64,000 nucleotides of DNA from Candidatus Chromulinivoraceae bacterium (lineage in GTDB: Bacteria; Patescibacteriota; Saccharimonadia; Saccharimonadales; Saccharimonadaceae), in assembly GCA_035478595.1 (NCBI GenBank), contig DATIJL010000012.1:1-64000 (forward strand), read 5' to 3'. A program made the translations under genes and the position numbers. Under the pieces are notes generated by a model. The model did no database searches. It saw only the letters and a list, made by a program, of their open reading frames with translations, and was not told the origin of the DNA. Shown here piece after piece: positions 784 to 48,857 of this stretch (its first letter is position 1; each line of letters begins with the position of its first letter).

Positions 784-1134
784 CTACCAGCTGCGTTGGC
801 GGAATGAACCACCTTCGCTACGGTTGTTACTGCTGCTACGACCACCGGCACCACCGCCGTTGAAATCACGGCGAGGACGGTCTTCTTTAGGACGAGCTAG
901 ACCAACGCTAATAGCGCGTCCGTCAAGCTCTTTGCCGTCGAGTTGGTCGACTGCTTTTTGGTTGTTAGCTTCGTCAACGTATTCAACGAAACCAAAACCC
1001 TTTGAACGGCCACTGTCACGGTCAGTGATGACACGTGCGCTGGCTACTTCGCCGATTTGCTCAAAATGAGCTTTTAGGCTGTCATCAGTAGTGCTATAAG
1101 CAAGGCTACCGATGAAAAGATTCTGTTGTGCCAT
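784..1134 (-). CDS. RRM-type RNA-binding protein with glycine/arginine-rich tail
   Basis: A single RNA recognition motif occupies about residues 4-80, with RNP2 (LFIGSL) and RNP1 (KGFGFVEY) both intact, so single-stranded RNA binding is expected. The tail (about 85-116) is rich in Gly, Arg, Ser and Asn, like the disordered tails of small bacterial and cyanobacterial Rbp proteins often linked to cold response. Length (116 aa) is typical. An AAGAAGAAAGAG purine run lies about 14 bases before the ATG, rather far for a Shine-Dalgarno. The gene ends at the shared hairpin at 742-767 and stands alone. The target RNAs are unknown; cold induction is only suggested by the family. Confidence 0.9.
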   Translation of the reverse strand: MAQQNLFIGSLAYSTTDDSLKAHFEQIGEVASARVITDRDSGRSKGFGFVEYVDEANNQKAVDQLDGKELDGRAISVGLARPKEDRPRRDFNGGGAGGRSSSNNRSEGGSFRQRSW

Positions 1135-5905: not shown

Positions 5906-6430
5906 TCACGAGATGGAGAGGTTACCTGCCCATCCGACCACGATGGTGGCTACGTTGATGAACCCGGTTAGGAACGAATAGCGCCAGAATTCTAGCGCGT
6001 ACCCGACCCAAGGCACCAGTGTCGCCAACGCTGTCATGACGAGACCGAAGAGGAAGCCATCCCAGAACAGCTTCTCGGAATTCATGTAGCGAAATCCGAA
6101 AATGACGGCCAGGATGACTGCGACGACGACACCGCCGATGTTCCACAGTCCGCTCAGGCCAGCGCCGAGCTGGTTGGACAGGTCGATGAGACGCTTCGAG
6201 AACGACCCGATGAGGTGGGTGTCCTGAAGCGTCGAGACGGCCGTCGCGGTCATCATCAGGACGATGACCTGGGGGATCCGGTTGCCGAGCTTGTTGACGC
6301 CCGGGATCCTGTCCGCCCACTGATCGGCCGCGATCACGGCGAGCATCGACAGCATGAGCTGAGTAATCCAGGTCGGCGTTGCCACGGGCTTGAGCACGTG
6401 TGGCACTGCCGCGAGGATAATCGTGTGCAC
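5906..6430 (-). CDS. Multi-pass membrane protein of GC-rich, foreign-looking composition
   Basis: I do not recognise a family. The protein (about 174 aa) has roughly four hydrophobic segments, around residues 20-35, 50-70, 90-115 and 120-165. The start chosen is GTG at 6428-6430, because TGGAGGTG lies at proper spacing before it; an upstream ATG in the same frame (6466) has no ribosome site. Its base composition and codon use are clearly more GC-rich than the copper and MFS genes beside it. Upstream DNA is AT-rich and could hold a promoter (TTCACA, 17 bases, TAATAT on the minus strand). It resembles the other GC-rich cassettes of this window and is a likely acquired gene. Confidence 0.7.
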   Translation of the reverse strand: MHTIILAAVPHVLKPVATPTWITQLMLSMLAVIAADQWADRIPGVNKLGNRIPQVIVLMMTATAVSTLQDTHLIGSFSKRLIDLSNQLGAGLSGLWNIGGVVVAVILAVIFGFRYMNSEKLFWDGFLFGLVMTALATLVPWVGYALEFWRYSFLTGFINVATIVVGWAGNLSIS

Positions 6431-6522
6431 GCTACACCTCCATTTTCGTCTGCCAAATCTTGACAATCTATATTAACATTTTTTGATAAAAATGTGAATA
6501 CATTATGTGTATATTGTCAAAT

Positions 6523-23799: not shown

Positions 23800-24708
23800 A
23801 CCTGAGTCTCAAAACCCCCACATAAGCTGGTACGCGAGCAATGTTCGGATGTAGTGAACGGCGTAGCCGTTCACCGAGCGGGGAAACGAACTCTGTAAGA
23901 AGAGATGTTCTTTAAGATAGTCAAAGACGCATTCAATCCGTGGTCGAGCCCGCAGCAGCGTTAGCTGCCAGCGGGCCAGTACTTTCTTTTTCTGCGTGGG
24001 ATGCGGTGGCGAAACAATGTAGGCATGGTGTTCTCGCCACATCTTTCGTCTCATAACGCTGGCAGTGTAGCCACCGTCGCCTACGGCGACGGTGGTAGCG
24101 TCATTCACGAGTCGAGGTATCTGTTGGCTATCCGCTTCATTGGCGGGTGTAAAGAAAACGGCCGCCAGTTGGCCACGTGTGTTGCACGCCGCATGCAACT
24201 TAAAGCCGTAGTGCCAGCCCTGCCAATTCTTGCCGAAGGCGGCGATTCCTCTCGCCACCTTGTGGCGGTCGGCTCGAACTAAGCGGCAGACTTCCAGCAT
24301 GGTACTGTCCATGAAGCGGAGCACACTGTCTTTCACGAGCAGTTGGTCAAGCATGGCCAACATGCTCGGAAGTGCCTGGTGGCACTTCCGTACCCATGAC
24401 TTGTACGAAGGAAACTGAAAGCGACGGTAGTAGAAGGTTTGTGCCCAGACGTACACTCCTTTGAGTGTACGCTGCGGAGCAACCATGCTACTGAAGAGTA
24501 GTAGTCCAATGACGTCGTTGACGTGAAGAATAATTGGTCTGCCGCCGTGCGGGCTCACGCCCGTACGGGGCAAGAAGGTATCTACCACCTCAATTAAATT
24601 CTTGATATGATGAGAACGTAAAATACGCATGTTGCTTCTCCTTTTTTGTTTTGTCACTTCAAGGATAGCAGATGCGTATTTGCATTTGGAGGGTTTTGAG
24701 ACTCAGGT
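23800..24708 (-). mobile_element. Complete IS982-family insertion sequence
   Basis: A 909-bp element bounded by perfect 18-bp terminal inverted repeats, ACCTGAGTCTCAAAACCC at 23800-23817 and its complement at 24691-24708. One transposase gene fills it; its TGA stop lies inside the left repeat. No target duplication is visible (TATGTAGG on the left, CTCTTAAA on the right), so flanks may have recombined or decayed. A diverged relative in the same orientation occurs at 1-239. Confidence 0.92.
23809..24630 (-). CDS. IS982 family transposase
   Basis: The 273-aa DDE transposase has IS982-type blocks: FMDSTMLEVCRLVRADRHK (first Asp), WHYGFKLHAACNTRG, TPANEADSQ, AVGDGGYTASVM (second Asp) and RPRIECVFDYLKEHL (Glu). 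All three catalytic residues are present and the frame is intact, so it may be active. The start is ATG 24630 preceded by GGAGAAG; the frame continues upstream to 24657 without a ribosome site. Stop TGA lies within the left terminal repeat. Confidence 0.93.
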   Translation of the reverse strand: MRILRSHHIKNLIEVVDTFLPRTGVSPHGGRPIILHVNDVIGLLLFSSMVAPQRTLKGVYVWAQTFYYRRFQFPSYKSWVRKCHQALPSMLAMLDQLLVKDSVLRFMDSTMLEVCRLVRADRHKVARGIAAFGKNWQGWHYGFKLHAACNTRGQLAAVFFTPANEADSQQIPRLVNDATTVAVGDGGYTASVMRRKMWREHHAYIVSPPHPTQKKKVLARWQLTLLRARPRIECVFDYLKEHLFLQSSFPRSVNGYAVHYIRTLLAYQLMWGF

Positions 24709-24787: not shown

Positions 24788-25249
24788 ATGCTCCAGACGA
24801 AGGATGTGTTGCAGATGGCTGCTTCGACTAGCTTCACCGATCGCACGCTGCGGTTGCCCGTGTGGGCGATCGCCACCATGCTCGTCGCTGGGCTGCTGTC
24901 CGTCGCGTTCGCGGGATCGTTCTTCACCGTCGTGGCGCTCGCGCTGCTGGTGGTGAACATCGTCGGCGCGTTCAAGTACTTCGGCGCCGAGGTCAAGCGC
25001 ATCAGCGCGGCTCACGCCGGACACCCGATCGACAAGGCGTCGCTTCGTAAGGACGCCATGGGTTCGCTCGCGACCCCGATGTGGCTGGTGATCACACTGG
25101 CTGTCGGGTCCCTGTGGACCGGCTTCGCCCTGGCGGAGCTCGTGGGCGTCCTAATCGGACTGGTGTTCATGCTGGTCATCGTGGCCGGCCTGGGCGTCGC
25201 GCTCTACCTCGGTTACAAGGTCGCCAAGAAGCGAGGCTACATCAGCTAG
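24788..25249 (+). CDS. GC-rich small membrane protein, function unknown
   Basis: I recognise no family. The 153-aa protein has about four hydrophobic segments in two pairs (about 23-58 and 97-143) and a basic C-terminal tail with KVAKKRGYIS. Its DNA is far richer in GC than neighbours: a hand count of 24901-24960 gives 39 G/C of 60 against 24 of 60 at 25681-25740 in rpsB. The start is uncertain; ATG 24815 (MAAST) with AAGGA upstream is an alternative. TTGACA at 24724-24729 and TATATT at 24745-24750 lie upstream. It sits between the IS982 copy and rpsB and is a likely acquired cassette. Confidence 0.65.
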   Translation: MLQTKDVLQMAASTSFTDRTLRLPVWAIATMLVAGLLSVAFAGSFFTVVALALLVVNIVGAFKYFGAEVKRISAAHAGHPIDKASLRKDAMGSLATPMWLVITLAVGSLWTGFALAELVGVLIGLVFMLVIVAGLGVALYLGYKVAKKRGYIS

Positions 25250-25410: not shown

Positions 25411-25493
25411 GGTCAGGTAAACAATTTTTAATGACACAATCCGTGCCATACTCCTGAACCTCAGGGGCGCGGATGAGGAACAAGGAGTTTCAA

Positions 25494-26201
25494 ATGGCAG
25501 TAACTGTCGATATTAAAGCTCTACTCGAAGCTGGTGTTCACTTTGGACACAAAACGAGCCGCTGGCACCCAAAAATGGCCCAGTACATTCATTCTAAGCG
25601 TCAGGACAGTCACATCATTGACCTGACTAAAACGGTAGAAGGCCTTGATAAGGCGCTTCCATTCCTTACTAAGGTCGCTGGTAGCGGCAAGCAAATTTTG
25701 TTTGTTGGCACAAAAAAGCAGGCTAAGGATATTGTAAAGGCAACCGCTGAACAAGTAGGTCAGCCATTCGTTACTGAACGTTGGATCGGTGGTATGCTTA
25801 CCAACGTTGACACCGTATCAGCACAAATTAAAAAGCTAAAAGATCTCGAACGTCGCATGGCTTCTGGTGATCTTGAAAAGCGCTACAATAAGCTCGAAGT
25901 TCAGCGTTTCCAAGAGGAAATTGACGAACTTAACATTAAGTACGGTGGCATTAAAGACCTTAACGGCAAGCCAGGTGCGATGATCGTTATTGACGTTCTT
26001 ACTGATGCGAATGCCATTAAAGAGGCAAAGACACTCGGTATTCCAGTTGTTGGTGTCGTAGATACTAACGCTGATCCAACTCCAGTCGACTACGTTATTC
26101 CTGGTAACGACGACGCGATCAAGGGCCTTCAACTGCTTCTTAGTTACTTTGGCGAAGCGGTCGCAGAAGGTGCGGGAACTGTTAAAAAAGAGGAGAAATA
26201 A
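25494..26201 (+). CDS. rpsB: 30S ribosomal protein S2
   Basis: S2 (235 aa) binds the 30S head-body region. Sequence is textbook: LEAGVHFGHKTSRWHPKM, RQDSHIIDLTKTVEGL, ERWIGGMLTN, then VVDTNADPTPVDYVIPGNDDA. ATG 25494 follows AAGGAG by eight bases. It is first in the rpsB-tsf operon; its stop overlaps the tsf start by one base. Some bacteria autoregulate rpsB at the leader; a small CCTGAACCTCAGG hairpin lies in this leader, but I see no known motif. Confidence 0.98.
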   Translation: MAVTVDIKALLEAGVHFGHKTSRWHPKMAQYIHSKRQDSHIIDLTKTVEGLDKALPFLTKVAGSGKQILFVGTKKQAKDIVKATAEQVGQPFVTERWIGGMLTNVDTVSAQIKKLKDLERRMASGDLEKRYNKLEVQRFQEEIDELNIKYGGIKDLNGKPGAMIVIDVLTDANAIKEAKTLGIPVVGVVDTNADPTPVDYVIPGNDDAIKGLQLLLSYFGEAVAEGAGTVKKEEK

Positions 26202-26800
26202 TGATGGCTGTTTCAATCGAAGACATCAAAAAGCTTAAAGAACTAACAGGCGTTGGTTTGACCGATGCTAAAAAAGCGCTCGTAGAAGCTGATGGCGATT
26301 TTGATAAAGCTCTCGAAGCAATGCGCAAAAAAGGTCTTACTAAAGCAGAGAAAAAAGGTGACCGTGAAGCCCGCGAAGGCATCATCGACAGCTACGTTCA
26401 TGGTGGACGTATCGGCGTTGTAGTAGAGGTTAACTGTGAGACTGACTTCGTTGCTCGTCTTGATGACTTTAAAAAGGTCGCTCACGAAATCGCTATGCAG
26501 GTTGCGGCTATGAGTCCTAAGTATGTCACTGAGGCTGATATTCCAGCTGAAGAAGTAGACCGCTTTAAGACTGAGGCTATGGAACGCGTAAAGAACGAAG
26601 GCAAGCCAGCCGAGATCGCCGAAAAGATCGTTGAAGGCCAGGTTAAAAAGCACTTTGCTGAGCAAGTACTTATGAGTCAACAATTTATTCTTGACGATAA
26701 AAAGAGCGTCGAAGAATATGTTAAAGAAAACATCGCAAAACTTGGTGAAAACATTGTTATTCGCCAGTTCAAGCGTATCGAACTCGGCGTAAACGAGTAG
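26201..26800 (+). CDS. tsf: Elongation factor Ts
   Basis: EF-Ts (199 aa) is the nucleotide exchange factor of EF-Tu. The N-terminal UBA-like domain with LRELTGVG-type KELTGVGLTDAKKAL and the core CETDFVARLDDF are clear. It is short compared with E. coli (283 aa), having a single core domain as in many other bacteria. Start may be ATG 26201 or ATG 26204; both follow AGGAG. It overlaps rpsB by one base. A terminator at 26820 closes the operon. pyrH, which often follows, is not here. Confidence 0.97.
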   Translation: MMAVSIEDIKKLKELTGVGLTDAKKALVEADGDFDKALEAMRKKGLTKAEKKGDREAREGIIDSYVHGGRIGVVVEVNCETDFVARLDDFKKVAHEIAMQVAAMSPKYVTEADIPAEEVDRFKTEAMERVKNEGKPAEIAEKIVEGQVKKHFAEQVLMSQQFILDDKKSVEEYVKENIAKLGENIVIRQFKRIELGVNE

Positions 26801-26819
26801 ATATATCTTTGACTCTTTT

Positions 26820-26847
26820 AAAAACCCGGCAGTATAGCCGGGTTTTT
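26820..26847 (+). terminator. Intrinsic terminator of rpsB-tsf
   Basis: AAAAACCCGGC pairs perfectly with GCCGGGTTTTT around a 6-base loop. Confidence 0.9.
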
Positions 26848-26868
26848 AAGTTGACAGGAGGGAAGTAA

Positions 26869-26897
26869 TTGCATTATTTGCATTTTTATGTTACAAT
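26869..26897 (+). promoter_or_regulatory. Promoter of the GC-rich lipase cassette
   Basis: TTGCAT (26869-26874), 17-base spacer, TACAAT (26892-26897), in AT-rich DNA just before the GC-rich genes. Confidence 0.6.
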
Positions 26898-26954
26898 AAT
26901 ATTAACCTTAGGGTAGAGCACTAGCGGAGATTCGTTCTAGGTTAGGGGAAAGCA

Positions 26955-27356
26955 ATGCGACGCGGTCGCGTTATAGTCGTAGCGGTTCTTGCAGTCGCTA
27001 TATTGGTGACGGCCGGTTGGTTTTTCTACAGCCGTAGCCAGTCACCAGTCAACCCGGCACTACCGTCTCGTCTCACAGAGTCACAGGTCTCGTTCCTTGA
27101 GTCCGGGCTTAACAGTCAGGATAAGAGCGAACAGGCCAAGATTCTCACTCCGCCGCTTCGCAGTGGCGAGTGGAACCCGGGAGGGGTTCGCGCAAACGGG
27201 ACGACGGTCAAGATCGATCCGTCCTCGTTTGTGGCGGACGGTCTTGGCGGTGCACACGTGAATGCCAAAGTGAGCGGATTGGTTTCGGCCGAATTCGTCC
27301 TCACGCTGGCCTATATCGACGGTCAGTGGTTCCTCGTCACCTCAACCAAGAAGTAG
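26955..27356 (+). CDS. Membrane-anchored extracytoplasmic protein, GC-rich
   Basis: The 133-aa protein has a basic N-terminus, a single hydrophobic helix (about 6-25) and an extracellular domain of about 105 residues ending in beta-rich SAEFVLTLAYIDGQWFLVTS. No family recognised. The AGGGGAAAG before ATG is a good ribosome site. The DNA is GC-rich like the following gene, which begins within five bases of the TAG stop, so the two form an operon. A role as lipase partner or surface tether is only inferred from the pairing. Confidence 0.7.
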   Translation: MRRGRVIVVAVLAVAILVTAGWFFYSRSQSPVNPALPSRLTESQVSFLESGLNSQDKSEQAKILTPPLRSGEWNPGGVRANGTTVKIDPSSFVADGLGGAHVNAKVSGLVSAEFVLTLAYIDGQWFLVTSTKK

Positions 27357-27360
27357 GGCG

Positions 27361-28800
27361 GTGAAGATCATGAAGCGCTACACGGCGGGCCTTTGGGCCT
27401 TGCTTGTCAGCGTGGGTTTGGTACTGGGCACGATCGTCGGCGTTCAGCCGGCGGTGGCCAGTGAGTCGATCGCCTGCGATAGTGGCTTTGGCACCAAGGT
27501 GCCGGTGCTGCTGGTGCATGGGTTCGATTCGAATTCGAGCATGTGGTCTGAGGGTAAGCCATCAATGATTGATGCCGCTAGTAATATTGACGGTGTTGAG
27601 GTGGTAAAGCCGTTCGACTACAAAGACAACCACTTCGACTGGGTCACCAATGACAACATCGGACCCAAGCTAGCCCGAACGATCGACTGCCTGGCGCAAA
27701 CCTCCCGTAAGGAGGGTGGCCCAGGCAAAGTGATCGTCGTGGCACACTCGATGGGTGGCTTGGCGGCACGGTTTGCTGCCAATCAGACCATCGACGGCCG
27801 CAAGGTGGCCGATGAGCTTGGTCTGGTGGTCACACTTGGTACGCCCAACACGGGCAGTCCCTGGGCAACCGCCTTTGGCGACCTACCGCGGGCATACTGC
27901 CGGCTGCTTGTCGACAATTCGCTAGCTCCCGAGCAGCGAATGGAGCAGGTCAGCCTGTGCTGGGCGAGTAGCGCCCTCAGCGCTATGCGCGAGGGATCTA
28001 ACGAGCTGGCGCAGCTCCCACACTTTCCGGATTCCGTTCCGGTCAGGGCGATCGCCGGGCAGGTGACCCTGTATGCGCAGTACCTGTTCAGTGATGTCAA
28101 GCAGCCCCTCTCGGACGATCTGATCGTGCCGGTGAATTCGGCCTTGGCCGAGTACACCAACAAGGGTGTCGGTGACGGTCGGTTCGTGTTTTCGTGTGAC
28201 CTTCGTCGCTATGACACTTACGGATCGTCGGGACCCATTCCGAACGTCAAAGGTGGCCAGTGTTCTCATAACGAGATGTACAAGACTGGCTACATCCAGC
28301 AGTCAGTGACAAATGGGATCGGCGACTACCTGGCAAGTCGGTCACCGAACCTTGCTCCGATGCCAGATTATGGCCATTTCGGCTCCGGTCGGACGACCAT
28401 ACTCGATCGACTCGTTATCCCCACACCAAAGGGCTGGCAACTGTCCTTTACGAAGCCGGGGACGTTCGTGAACTTCTCGGATGACACGAACTGCGACGAG
28501 CAAACGAGTGCATGTCCCCACATTCACTTCATCAGCATATCACCAGGTAATACGGGTGATGATCTGATAAAGTTGTGGACAAATGGGCATGGTGACTGTG
28601 TGTCTGGGTCTCCCCGCAATGTCGAGGGGCCAGTGAACGTCACCGTAGGAGGTGAGCTTGCTCAACTGTACCGGCAATACTGCGGTAATGCTCCACGCTA
28701 CGCATGGACTATTCCGAGCAAGCAGCTTCATATAGACATCGATGAAGGAGGTGATGCGAGAATACTAGCAGGTGCGCTTGAAAAGGCCACCTGGAAGTAG
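27361..28800 (+). CDS. Secreted lipase/esterase-like alpha/beta hydrolase (GC-rich)
   Basis: A signal peptide spans about residues 1-34 (hydrophobic core ALLVSVGLVLG, cut near AVASES). The mature protein begins with VPVLLVHGFDSNSSMW (oxyanion strand), nucleophile elbow AHSMGG with Ser130, TLGTPNTGSPWA typical of lipases and PGAP1-like enzymes, acid near DDLIVPV and a possible His in SHNEMY. The last 150 residues form an extra Cys-containing domain I do not recognise. Length 479 aa. GTG 27361 and ATG 27370 both follow GGGCGG. The composition suggests transfer from a high-GC donor. It should act outside the cell on lipid or ester substrates, possibly host envelope; that target is inference. Confidence 0.82.
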   Translation: MKIMKRYTAGLWALLVSVGLVLGTIVGVQPAVASESIACDSGFGTKVPVLLVHGFDSNSSMWSEGKPSMIDAASNIDGVEVVKPFDYKDNHFDWVTNDNIGPKLARTIDCLAQTSRKEGGPGKVIVVAHSMGGLAARFAANQTIDGRKVADELGLVVTLGTPNTGSPWATAFGDLPRAYCRLLVDNSLAPEQRMEQVSLCWASSALSAMREGSNELAQLPHFPDSVPVRAIAGQVTLYAQYLFSDVKQPLSDDLIVPVNSALAEYTNKGVGDGRFVFSCDLRRYDTYGSSGPIPNVKGGQCSHNEMYKTGYIQQSVTNGIGDYLASRSPNLAPMPDYGHFGSGRTTILDRLVIPTPKGWQLSFTKPGTFVNFSDDTNCDEQTSACPHIHFISISPGNTGDDLIKLWTNGHGDCVSGSPRNVEGPVNVTVGGELAQLYRQYCGNAPRYAWTIPSKQLHIDIDEGGDARILAGALEKATWK

Positions 28801-28829
28801 CCATCAAAACTCAATAGTGCTCCCGAAGG

Positions 28830-28876
28830 CTCCGGCCGTTTCTACACAATCCAGTGTGGTGAACGGTCGGAGTTTT
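28830..28876 (+). terminator. Terminator of the lipase cassette
   Basis: CTCCGGCCGTT (28830-28840) pairs with AACGGTCGGAG (28862-28872) with one G-T pair, followed by TTTT. Confidence 0.75.
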
Positions 28877-28885
28877 CATACTTGC

Positions 28886-29344
28886 CTAGAGGGATTGCTT
28901 TGCTACCTGGTATTTAAAGTTTGGTATCTCGAGAATGTGCTGCTTTTTTGTAGACTTTAGGCTGGTGTTGCTATTATAAACATCATTTTTATTTATGTAA
29001 TAGTTTGTGTAGATTGTTTCGCCGCTTGGTGTTTTAATACCAAAATATATTTGGCCGTCTATGTTGCTAGGCTGCTTCACAACAGTCGCTTTTTGAAAAT
29101 ATTTGATAACGCTAGTGATGTCCAGATCCGTTCCATAATAATAAATAGCATTAGGATTAGAATCACATATAAGCCAACATCCGTAGCCAGTCTGCCCGAT
29201 ATATTCAAGCTGATCCCCAAGAGGATAGGTCTTTTGGGAAGCAGATTTGTTCACTAAAAAGATGGTTGTTAAGGCGCCCGCTATGATAATTACAATAACA
29301 AGTAGCAAGTATGCGATTTTTTTGTTTTTTATAAGTTTTTTCAT
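28886..29344 (-). CDS. Membrane-anchored hypothetical protein
   Basis: The 152-aa protein has a Lys-rich N-terminus and one helix (about 9-31); the rest is polar and Tyr/Asn-rich. Composition is AT-rich, so it is native-like, unlike the lipase beside it. No family recognised. The start is ATG 29344, nine bases after TATAGT on the minus strand; the open frame extends to 29365. It is divergent from frr. Confidence 0.6.
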   Translation of the reverse strand: MKKLIKNKKIAYLLLVIVIIIAGALTTIFLVNKSASQKTYPLGDQLEYIGQTGYGCWLICDSNPNAIYYYGTDLDITSVIKYFQKATVVKQPSNIDGQIYFGIKTPSGETIYTNYYINKNDVYNSNTSLKSTKKQHILEIPNFKYQVAKQSL

Positions 29345-29401
29345 GATAGTTTCACTATAGCACACCAGTGCAGGCCACTAAATATGGTAAAATAATCTTA
29401 T

Positions 29402-29956
29402 ATGTTTGATTCGAATTCCTACCAAGACAAGATAAATAGTGCACTTTCTCATTTTGAGGAGGAGCTTAAGAAAATTCGTACCGGTCGTGCTCACGCCAGT
29501 ATGCTAGAGAGTGTTAAGGTGGAAGTCTATGGGACGCTCATGCCTCTGAATCAGGCTTCTAACATTACGGCAGCCGAGGCGCAAATGCTGACCGTTACGC
29601 CGTTTGATCCTAGTAATATTAATGCTATTTCTGCAGCGATTCGTAATGACCAATCACTCGGTTTGAATCCTTCTGATGACGGCCGCGTGATTCATGTGCC
29701 TGTTCCAGCACTTACCGAGGAACGCCGTAGGCAATTAGTAAAACAATCATCTGAAAAGGGTGAAGAAGTCCGTATCGTACTTCGTAACATTCGCCAGGAT
29801 GGTCTTAAAGAAGCAAAGCGTAGAAAAGACGCCAAAGAACTCAGCGAAGATGACGTCAAACGCATCGAAAAGGATTTTGATAAGTCTATGGCTGATGCGC
29901 AGGGTAAAGTGGAGGCGACGCTCAAGGCTAAGGAAAAGGATATCCTCACAATCTAA
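29402..29956 (+). CDS. frr: Ribosome recycling factor
   Basis: RRF (184 aa) splits post-termination ribosomes together with EF-G. The family pattern is clear: FEEELKKIRTGRAHASMLESVKVEVYG, MLTVTPFDPSNINAISAAI, and RNIRQDGLKEAKRR with the closing coiled coil. TAAAAT is eight bases before the ATG, so leaderless initiation is likely. It overlaps uppS by one base in an operon running on to rseP. Confidence 0.98.
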   Translation: MFDSNSYQDKINSALSHFEEELKKIRTGRAHASMLESVKVEVYGTLMPLNQASNITAAEAQMLTVTPFDPSNINAISAAIRNDQSLGLNPSDDGRVIHVPVPALTEERRRQLVKQSSEKGEEVRIVLRNIRQDGLKEAKRRKDAKELSEDDVKRIEKDFDKSMADAQGKVEATLKAKEKDILTI

Positions 29957-48257: not shown

Positions 48258-48857
48258 CTACGACGGGTCGTGTCCGTGGACTATGTCCACGAGCGAAACC
48301 CTTATAGCTTTGAACTCGAGCCGCCACGACCACTCCTGTGCGTACGACAGATCGTACTCGAGCCGGAGCAATCCAGTGTCTTGTACTTCTTGCTGTACAC
48401 ACAGACGGTTGGTTACAGTGCCGATGCCCAAGCCCAAGAGGCCAGGCAGAGCGCCATACCGCTGCGTGAAGCGTGAGTCGATTTCAATGTAGCGACCATG
48501 TTGTTCCGGAGTTACCGGGCGAGGACCAACGAGGCTCATATCCCGCTTGAGGATATTGAGTACCTGACCGATCTCGTCGATCCCCCAGCGACGGAGGAAC
48601 TCCCCGAAGCGGGTAGGTTGGCCCTTGCGTGACCGAACACGTAGTTTGTAGAACTTGAACGATCCGTTCCTTCCCATACGCGGCTCGCTAACCAGTGGCA
48701 GACCACCCCCATTGAGGAGGCAGTAGACGCCATTGACGGTGACGAGCAGGACGAGAGGCACAAAGAACAGTGCCCCAACGAGTAGGTCGACAGCAAGCTT
48801 GACGCGGCGAGCGCCATACGGCAGGGTCTTGGTGGAGAGGTACGACGCGGGCACCAT
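48258..48857 (-). CDS. Undecaprenyl-phosphate sugar phosphotransferase (bacterial sugar transferase), GC-rich
   Basis: This 199-aa protein matches the short polyisoprenyl-phosphate hexose-1-phosphate transferase family that primes surface glycan synthesis. It has one reentrant membrane segment (about 20-48), SEPRMGRNGSFKFYKLRVRS and RRWGIDEIGQVLNILKRDMSLVGPRPVTPEQ; the usual KFRTM reads KLRVR. It acts at the inner membrane face. GGAGG precedes the ATG. The DNA is GC-rich between AT-rich neighbours, and its hairpin and leader make it a stand-alone cassette, so acquisition is likely. No other glycan genes are close. Confidence 0.88.
   Translation of the reverse strand: MVPASYLSTKTLPYGARRVKLAVDLLVGALFFVPLVLLVTVNGVYCLLNGGGLPLVSEPRMGRNGSFKFYKLRVRSRKGQPTRFGEFLRRWGIDEIGQVLNILKRDMSLVGPRPVTPEQHGRYIEIDSRFTQRYGALPGLLGLGIGTVTNRLCVQQEVQDTGLLRLEYDLSYAQEWSWRLEFKAIRVSLVDIVHGHDPS

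What the first reader, a model, noticed from the sequence alone, without database searches (positions are those of the whole stretch)
26801..29400. Secreted lipase cassette placed where pyrH is often found
In many bacteria the order is rpsB-tsf-pyrH-frr. Here tsf ends in a terminator and is followed by a GC-rich anchored protein, a signal-peptide lipase with GxSxG-type AHSMGG, a terminator, a small hypothetical and then frr. An extracellular lipase in an epibiont would be a candidate for attacking host lipid or envelope.
Basis: partly seen in the sequence, partly recalled or inferred. Interest (0 to 1): 0.55.

Follow-up and report, generated by a model that had tools for sequence, protein, structure and literature searches.

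The report
Secreted lipase cassette in variable slot
A tiny parasite-like bacterium carries, in a spot of its genome where relatives hold very different genes, a predicted secreted fat-splitting enzyme with two small membrane-anchored partner proteins; the enzyme and one partner have relatives in Actinobacteria, and the other partner comes in hypervariable copies.

Summary
In detail: tsf, a terminator, a small anchored protein (p133), a predicted exported alpha/beta-hydrolase lipase (479 aa, S130/D253/H303), a terminator, a small anchored protein on the minus strand (p159), then frr. The pyrH part is a red herring: pyrH is present elsewhere in this genome, and none of 98 tsf-frr intervals I fetched (97 from relatives) holds it. 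The interval is a hypervariable slot (26-4253 bp; 30 of 98 under 230 bp).

The cassette is sporadic. G156 has all three genes in the same slot; in G029, G004 and G108 the slot holds the lipase's C-terminal domain as an anchored protein without the lipase. The lipase groups with four Actinomycetota lipases (95/96) without nesting among them. A p133-like gene overlaps the lipase by 4 bp in Streptomyces and, more tentatively, Pseudonocardia. Strong p159 matches occur in 6 of 245 genomes, all lipase carriers (four were profile seeds), with tandem copies in two and a hypervariable middle.

Best reading: an exported lipase, of a family shared with Actinomycetota, acting on neighbour-cell lipids; p133 an anchored chaperone or tether; p159 an inhibitor/immunity protein or other polymorphic partner. 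Activity, target and both partner roles are inferred, not shown.

The parts
26201..26800 (+). tsf (EF-Ts), left border of the slot
26818..26849 (+). intrinsic terminator of tsf
   Evidence: z -5.1, 0 of 200 shuffles as stable
26955..27356 (+). p133: small protein with N-terminal membrane anchor; directly upstream of the lipase (4 bp gap)
   Evidence: homologs upstream of lipases in G156 and Streptomyces, tentatively Pseudonocardia and G250; no Pfam family above cut-off
27361..28800 (+). predicted secreted lipase: signal peptide (by eye), alpha/beta hydrolase domain (aa about 40-335) and C-terminal domain (aa about 340-479)
   Evidence: S130, D253, H303 invariant in 7 of 7 aligned rows, window included
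28381..28800 (+). C-terminal domain of the lipase; found without the lipase, as an anchored protein, in the tsf-frr slot of G029, G004 and G108
28825..28877 (+). intrinsic terminator after the lipase
   Evidence: z -5.6, 0 of 200 shuffles as stable
28886..29365 (-). p159: small protein with N-terminal membrane anchor, convergent to the lipase; strong matches only in lipase-bearing genomes of the sample
29402..29956 (+). frr (ribosome recycling factor), right border of the slot
   Evidence: RRF, 2.2e-54

Best explanation
The insert is a secreted-lipase cassette in a hypervariable gene slot between tsf and frr. The lipase is exported by its signal peptide and hydrolyses ester bonds of lipids outside the cell, most likely membrane lipids of the host or of neighbouring cells, giving a lipid-poor epibiont fatty acids or lysolipids (inferred). 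p133, directly upstream and part of a gene pair also seen in Actinomycetota, is most likely an anchored accessory that helps the lipase fold or holds it at the surface, in the manner of a lipase foldase (inferred). p159, a second anchored protein whose copies are tandem and hypervariable in two genomes and whose strong matches occur only where the lipase occurs, most likely binds the lipase or its partner and protects the producer, that is, works like an inhibitor or immunity protein (inferred, weaker). Shown: order, reading frames, conserved Ser/Asp/His, co-occurrence, the shared p133-lipase pair, slot variability. Not shown: export, enzyme activity, substrate, target and both partner roles.
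For: Lipase: three Pfam alpha/beta hydrolase families above cut-off; a profile of 7 rows best matches solved Burkholderia-type lipases, 8xy5 at 1.2e-11, then 1qge, 1ys1, 1hqd, 1cvl (N-terminal part of the profile only); S130, D253, H303 invariant in 7 of 7 rows; 7 Cys invariant in three full-length rows, fitting an exported protein. Same three genes in the same slot of G156. p133-lipase pair: G156 p133 against the Streptomyces protein, 0 of 2000 shuffles as good, z 9.0; window p133, 3 of 2000, z 4.5; in a control of 67 slot proteins the two best scores against the Streptomyces protein are G156's and the window's p133, 76 and 48, next 40; Pseudonocardia upstream ORF against Streptomyces 2 of 2000 and against the window 1 of 2000. 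p159: strong hits in 6 of 245 genomes, all among the 7 lipase genomes; tandem copies in G198 (2) and G148 (3) with conserved and divergent parts. Lipid shortage and proposed phospholipase attack in this phylum: PMC11665869, PMC8080830, PMC12455944, passages read.
Against: No activity or localisation data; 'lipase' could be another esterase. The nucleophile motif varies: GYSMGG in G198, GYSEG in G148, GFSLG in G210, so some copies may differ in function. The p133 profile has strong hits only in its two seed genomes, G000 and G156; G250 is weak (2.0e-4), and none was reported for G053, G198, G148 or G210, so p133 is not obligatory. G156-Pseudonocardia p133 similarity is weak (54 of 2000), and unrelated control proteins score 44 and 43 against the Pseudonocardia ORF, above G156's 41 and just below the window's 48. 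Two of four actinobacterial loci (L109, L111) have no p133-like gene upstream. p159 co-occurrence is partly built in: four of the six genomes supplied the profile's seeds, chosen next to lipases; only G210 and G053 are independent (p 1e-4), and there p159 is not adjacent to the lipase; lipase-bearing G250 has no p159 match. Hypervariability of the p159 middle is not proof of positive selection (dS high or saturated). AlphaFold models of lipase and p159 are poor (mean pLDDT 44).
Confidence: 0.55

Rival explanations
1. Plain scavenging enzyme: the lipase digests free or debris lipids for nutrition, and p133 and p159 are only surface tethers or chaperones; there is no attack on living cells and no immunity.
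For: Relatives of the lipase are in Streptomyces, Pseudonocardia and other Actinomycetota (that these are free-living is recalled); the C-terminal domain also exists as an anchored protein without the lipase, fitting a cell-surface role.
Against: Tandem, hypervariable p159 copies are not expected of a simple tether or chaperone.
Confidence: 0.3
2. The cassette is passing cargo: genes carried into a recombination-prone slot with no lasting function in this cell.
For: Slot content is scattered on a tsf+frr tree: the five C-domain slots need 4 changes, shuffles average 4.9, 34 of 500 as low; 30 of 98 slots are under 230 bp; cassette GC3 differs from the genome.
Against: Open frames and an invariant triad; the gene pair preserved in the distant G156 at 41 percent (lipase) and 37 percent (p133) identity, where GC3 is 0.38 and 0.40, below that of its frr, 0.48.
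Confidence: 0.1
3. pyrH was replaced by the lipase at this locus.
For: rpsB-tsf-pyrH-frr order is common in other bacteria (recalled).
Against: pyrH is present at G000:C3; 0 of 98 fetched slots hold pyrH; in the 7 relatives where pyrH and frr were both printed on one contig they lie 43-159 kb apart.
Confidence: 0.01

Closest known systems
Actinomycetota alpha/beta hydrolase with an overlapping upstream anchored protein (Streptomyces albidoflavus plasmid OG794_RS00740-RS00745; Pseudonocardia oroxyli L110 4381-4809 and 4806-8213)
   Same: Same lipase family (about 34 percent identity over 220-230 residues); a p133-like anchored protein directly upstream, clear in Streptomyces, tentative in Pseudonocardia
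   Different: C-terminal parts differ: LppP/LprE domain in Streptomyces, vWA plus GDSL in Pseudonocardia, a domain without a Pfam match in the window. p159 was not looked for there
Burkholderia/Pseudomonas-type triacylglycerol lipases with lipase-specific foldase (PF03280)
   Same: Best solved-structure match of the lipase profile; predicted exported lipase with a membrane-anchored protein encoded next to it
   Different: Neither p133 nor p159 matches Lipase_chap or any Pfam family above cut-off; p133 is encoded upstream; foldases are larger and usually downstream (recalled)
Antibacterial phospholipase effectors with periplasmic immunity proteins (Tle/Tli of type VI secretion; listing and starts of abstracts seen)
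   Same: Lipase near small anchored proteins, in tandem copies in two genomes
   Different: A signal peptide instead of injection; p159 has no Pfam or credible PDB match and was not compared with Tli directly; immunity not shown
Predicted secreted phospholipase of Vampirococcus lugosii (Vamp_34_196; passage read)
   Same: Predicted exported lipid hydrolase in a reduced epibiont, proposed to act on host membrane
   Different: Sequence relation not tested; no partner genes in the passages read

Membership tests
alpha/beta hydrolase lipase/esterase (Pfam Abhydrolase_6, PGAP1, DUF676) | profile score above curated cut-off | tested here: met
   32.7/26.3, 25.9/24.3, 24.3/20.3 bits
alpha/beta hydrolase lipase/esterase (Pfam Abhydrolase_6, PGAP1, DUF676) | Ser-Asp-His triad with a GxSxG-type elbow | tested here: met
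   S130, D253, H303 invariant in 7 of 7 rows; the elbow is AHSMGG in window, G053 and G250, GHSMGG in G156, GYSMGG in G198, GYSEG in G148, GFSLG in G210. D253 and H303 are named as catalytic by conservation only
alpha/beta hydrolase lipase/esterase (Pfam Abhydrolase_6, PGAP1, DUF676) | hydrolysis of lipid esters | not testable with these tools
   needs an assay
foldase-dependent lipase system (lipase plus PF03280 foldase) | adjacent protein of the Lipase_chap family | tested here: not met
   no such match for p133 or the p159 family. A whole-genome search found 0 of 7, but its controls rang nowhere, so it shows nothing
foldase-dependent lipase system (lipase plus PF03280 foldase) | lipase related to the Burkholderia-type lipases | tested here: met
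   8xy5 1.2e-11, over profile positions 13-198 of 507 only
lipase effector-immunity pair | small anchored partner gene linked to the lipase | tested here: inconclusive
   p159 adjacent or in the same slot in G000, G156, G198, G148; present but not adjacent in G210 and G053; no match in G250
lipase effector-immunity pair | partner blocks the enzyme or protects from it | not testable with these tools
   needs an assay
lipase effector-immunity pair | dedicated delivery system | not tested
   only a signal peptide was read from the sequence
rpsB-tsf-pyrH-frr arrangement | pyrH between tsf and frr | tested here: not met
   0 of 98 slots (positive control rang)

The most novel reading that the evidence does not exclude
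Saccharibacteria carry a lipase weapon with its own polymorphic immunity: an exported lipase, of a family shared with the phylum of their hosts, is kept in a hypervariable tsf-frr slot (and elsewhere) together with p159, whose copies with a hypervariable middle neutralise matching lipases of self or of rival epibionts.
Probability: 0.25. Interest if true: 0.75.

Novelty: new variant of a known kind. Interest (0 to 1): 0.5.

Why it matters
[quoted passage not shown] This cassette names a concrete candidate enzyme, two candidate partners with testable roles, and a natural comparison between relatives (slot with lipase, slot with only the C-terminal domain, empty slot). It also shows a recurrent cargo slot between two translation genes.

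Tried and rejected
pyrH replacement: rejected.

Recent transfer from a host-like actinobacterium into this species: not supported. The 7 Saccharibacteria and the 4 Actinomycetota rows fall on two sides of a 97/98 branch; identity to Actinomycetota is 30-34.5 percent, and the few higher values outside are over short stretches (35 percent over 123 residues, L114; 39 percent over 89 residues, Agrobacterium). Direction of the old exchange cannot be told. The tree carries warnings: long branches (L124, L122, G250), odd composition (L124, G250, L112, L111), root for drawing only. Of 18 loci I used 13: L108 was left out as the same sequence as G156, and L117, L119, L120, L125 were left out; the Streptomyces row was added, the Agrobacterium hit was not. 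One search reached relatives through two peptide patterns only.

Assembly chimera: rejected as the main explanation. The insert lies inside a 129 kb contig, and another genome (G156, 67 percent complete) has the same three genes in the same slot.

Structure prediction with two sequences each gave mean pLDDT 44; the PDB fold search on the lipase model returned mostly alpha/beta hydrolases, top 1tah at 1.8e-5, but TM-scores of about 0.2-0.4, used only as a consistency check. p159 has no family (two chance-level matches) and no PDB relative (mainly antibody light chains, E 0.55 and up); the C-terminal domain has none either (one member matches Mucin, probably through its threonine-rich linker). 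p133 against the C-terminal domain: no relation. Window p133 against Streptomyces by BLASTP alone: nothing significant; the relation shows through G156, the two-row profile and shuffles.

Phage collection: no lipase match. Plasmids: 2 records for the lipase, none for p133 of G156 or the C-terminal domain. Class-wide sample: 3 of 342 genomes at E 1e-10, all from the window's family. First peptide scan of genome contigs: nothing.

Literature: 'Saccharibacteria, tsf, frr' found 0 papers. 'Saccharibacteria, lipase' found 90, 20 listed; 'Patescibacteria, phospholipase, host' 54, 15 listed, two of which I opened by passages; 'Saccharibacteria, horizontal gene transfer, Actinobacteria, secreted' 21, 15 listed, one opened by passages; 'Patescibacteria, immunity protein' 5; 'Saccharibacteria, fatty acid, lysophospholipid' 6. 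No listed title names this gene or slot. These cover one open-access library only, and unlisted papers were not seen.
Full report
Observation. The window belongs to a 1.14 Mb genome in 19 contigs (99.5% complete). It lies in the same family as G156, whose contig C11 has the length and match position of JAQGGY010000027.1, 'Candidatus Saccharibacteria bacterium isolate RYN_419'. Between tsf and frr lie p133, the lipase and, on the minus strand, p159, with strong terminators after tsf and after the lipase. p133 and lipase are 4 bp apart and look like one transcript. The lipase starts with a typical signal peptide ending in AVA-SE (read by eye). GC3 is raised in p133 and lipase (z 2.0 and 2.2 over 63 window ORFs) but not in p159.

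pyrH. Two amino-acid-kinase genes were found in the genome; the one at C3:6307-6996 passes the TIGR02075 cut-off. Of 61 genomes searched (the window's and 60 relatives), 41 had a match, 31 over the cut-off, and 20 had none. In the 7 relatives where pyrH and frr were both printed on one contig (G009, G013, G015, G023, G029, G032, G035) they lie 43-159 kb apart. I fetched 98 tsf-frr intervals, the window's own and 97 from relatives, chosen from the 245 genomes because both hits were printed and lay close together on one strand of one contig. This leaves out genomes with unprinted hits, genes on different contigs or far apart (e.g. G010, G172), or on opposite strands (G277). None of the 98 holds pyrH; the positive control rang.

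The slot. The 98 intervals run from 26 to 4253 bp: 30 under 230 bp, 24 of 230-999 bp, 44 of 1000 bp or more. Contents differ widely: a RecF/SMC-like cluster of 20 proteins (three checked by Pfam), 9 pilin-like proteins in 8 slots (one checked), an ABC/FtsX pair in two slots (one checked), and many singletons. Slot GC is mostly close to or below that of tsf and frr; G029 (+0.14) and the window (+0.07) stand out. Lipase or C-domain genes fill 4 of the 98 (window, G156, G029, G004); G108, found later, is a fifth slot outside the 98.

The cassette elsewhere. In 245 family genomes, the window's included, the lipase profile matched 18 at E 0.001 or better: strong lipase-domain hits in 7 (G000, G156, G053, G198, G250, G148, G210), C-domain-only hits in 3 (G029, G004, and weakly G108), and weak short hydrolase matches in 8. 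G156 has p159, p133 and lipase (41% identity) in the same slot, with p159 upstream and divergent instead of downstream and convergent. G053's lipase sits at a contig start with no frr beside it. The C-terminal domain matched 9 of 245 genomes; without the lipase it is in the tsf-frr slot of G029, G004 and G108, with GC3 of 0.83, 0.71 and 0.87. On a tsf+frr tree of 99 rows the five slots are scattered (4 changes, at least 3 forced; shuffles 4.9 on average, 34 of 500 as low), with G000 and G029 sisters and G156 distant, next to G103 and G144, which gave no lipase match. Old presence with many losses and repeated transfer into the same slot both fit.

p159. The profile matched 7 of 245 genomes; strong hits are in 6, G000, G156, G198, G148, G210, G053, all lipase carriers, and G021 is a marginal hit with a stop inside. 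Lipase-bearing G250 has none. Counting all six, p = 2.5e-11; but four of them supplied the seeds, chosen for lying near lipases. The two non-seed genomes alone give p = 1e-4; there p159 lies about 20 kb away on the same contig with a second copy on another contig (G210), or on another contig (G053). Two tandem copies (G198) and three (G148) lie divergent to the lipase. In G148 the copies share 63-66 of 76 residues before and 32-34 of 40 after a middle with only 8-12 of 36-39; in G198 72 of 80, then 21 of 72. dN is 0.75-0.88 in the G148 middle and 0.91 in the G198 remainder, but dS is 1.56 to saturated, so selection cannot be inferred.

Origin. The lipase tree sets the 7 Saccharibacteria and 4 Actinomycetota rows apart from 9 Pseudomonadota and one archaeal row (95/96); the two groups fall on two sides of a 97/98 branch, with the tool's warnings about long branches, among them G250. 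In Streptomyces albidoflavus a 144 aa anchored protein overlaps the start of the lipase by 4 bp and resembles p133: G156 z 9.0, window z 4.5. In Pseudonocardia an ORF of the same position and size resembles the Streptomyces protein (z 4.7) and the window's (z 4.8), less so G156's (z 2.5, 54 of 2000), and unrelated control proteins come close (44 and 43 against the window's 48), so this one is tentative. L109 and L111 lack such a gene. In the family sample the p133 profile hits strongly only its two seed genomes; G250 is weak. So an exported lipase with an anchored upstream partner appears to be an old unit shared by the two phyla, with different C-terminal parts.

Mechanism. The enzyme side is well supported by family and conserved residues, the export by eye only; substrate and target are inferred from the lipid needs of such cells (PMC11665869, PMC8080830, PMC12455944; passages read). 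p133 as foldase-like helper rests on position, anchoring and the fact that the best solved relatives include a lipase also solved with its foldase (2es4 is listed with 1cvl, and named so); it is not a Lipase_chap member. p159 as inhibitor or immunity protein rests on co-occurrence, anchoring, tandem copies and the hypervariable middle. It is the most novel and the least certain part.

Noticed in passing
window 26801-29401 and loci L008-L104, L107: The tsf-frr interval is a hypervariable gene slot across the family: 26-4253 bp, with RecF-like ATPases, pilin-like proteins, ABC/FtsX pairs or nothing.
   Followed up: partly
window 24788-25249 (+), 5906-6466 (-), 48258-48857 (-): Other GC3 outliers (0.88, 0.80, 0.68): a small membrane protein (DUF1385 below cut-off), a Tmemb_14-like protein below cut-off, and a bacterial sugar transferase above cut-off.
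   Followed up: partly
window 23809-24657 (-): IS982-type transposase above its NCBIfam cut-off, upstream of the rpsB-like ORF at 25473; a similar one is at L106 18221-19042 (similarity seen by eye).
   Followed up: no
L129 (G198), L131 (G148) and L132 (G210): Lipase relatives with altered nucleophile motif, GYSMGG, GYSEG and GFSLG.
   Followed up: no
L156 (G013 C2:308434-308901): A C-terminal-domain protein in a 202 aa frame outside the tsf-frr slot.
   Followed up: no
L130 (G250): A 711 aa relative with the lipase domain fused to DUF5050, preceded by a weakly p133-like gene.
   Followed up: partly
window 784-1134 (-): RRM-type RNA-binding protein (PF00076, 7.5e-23).
   Followed up: no
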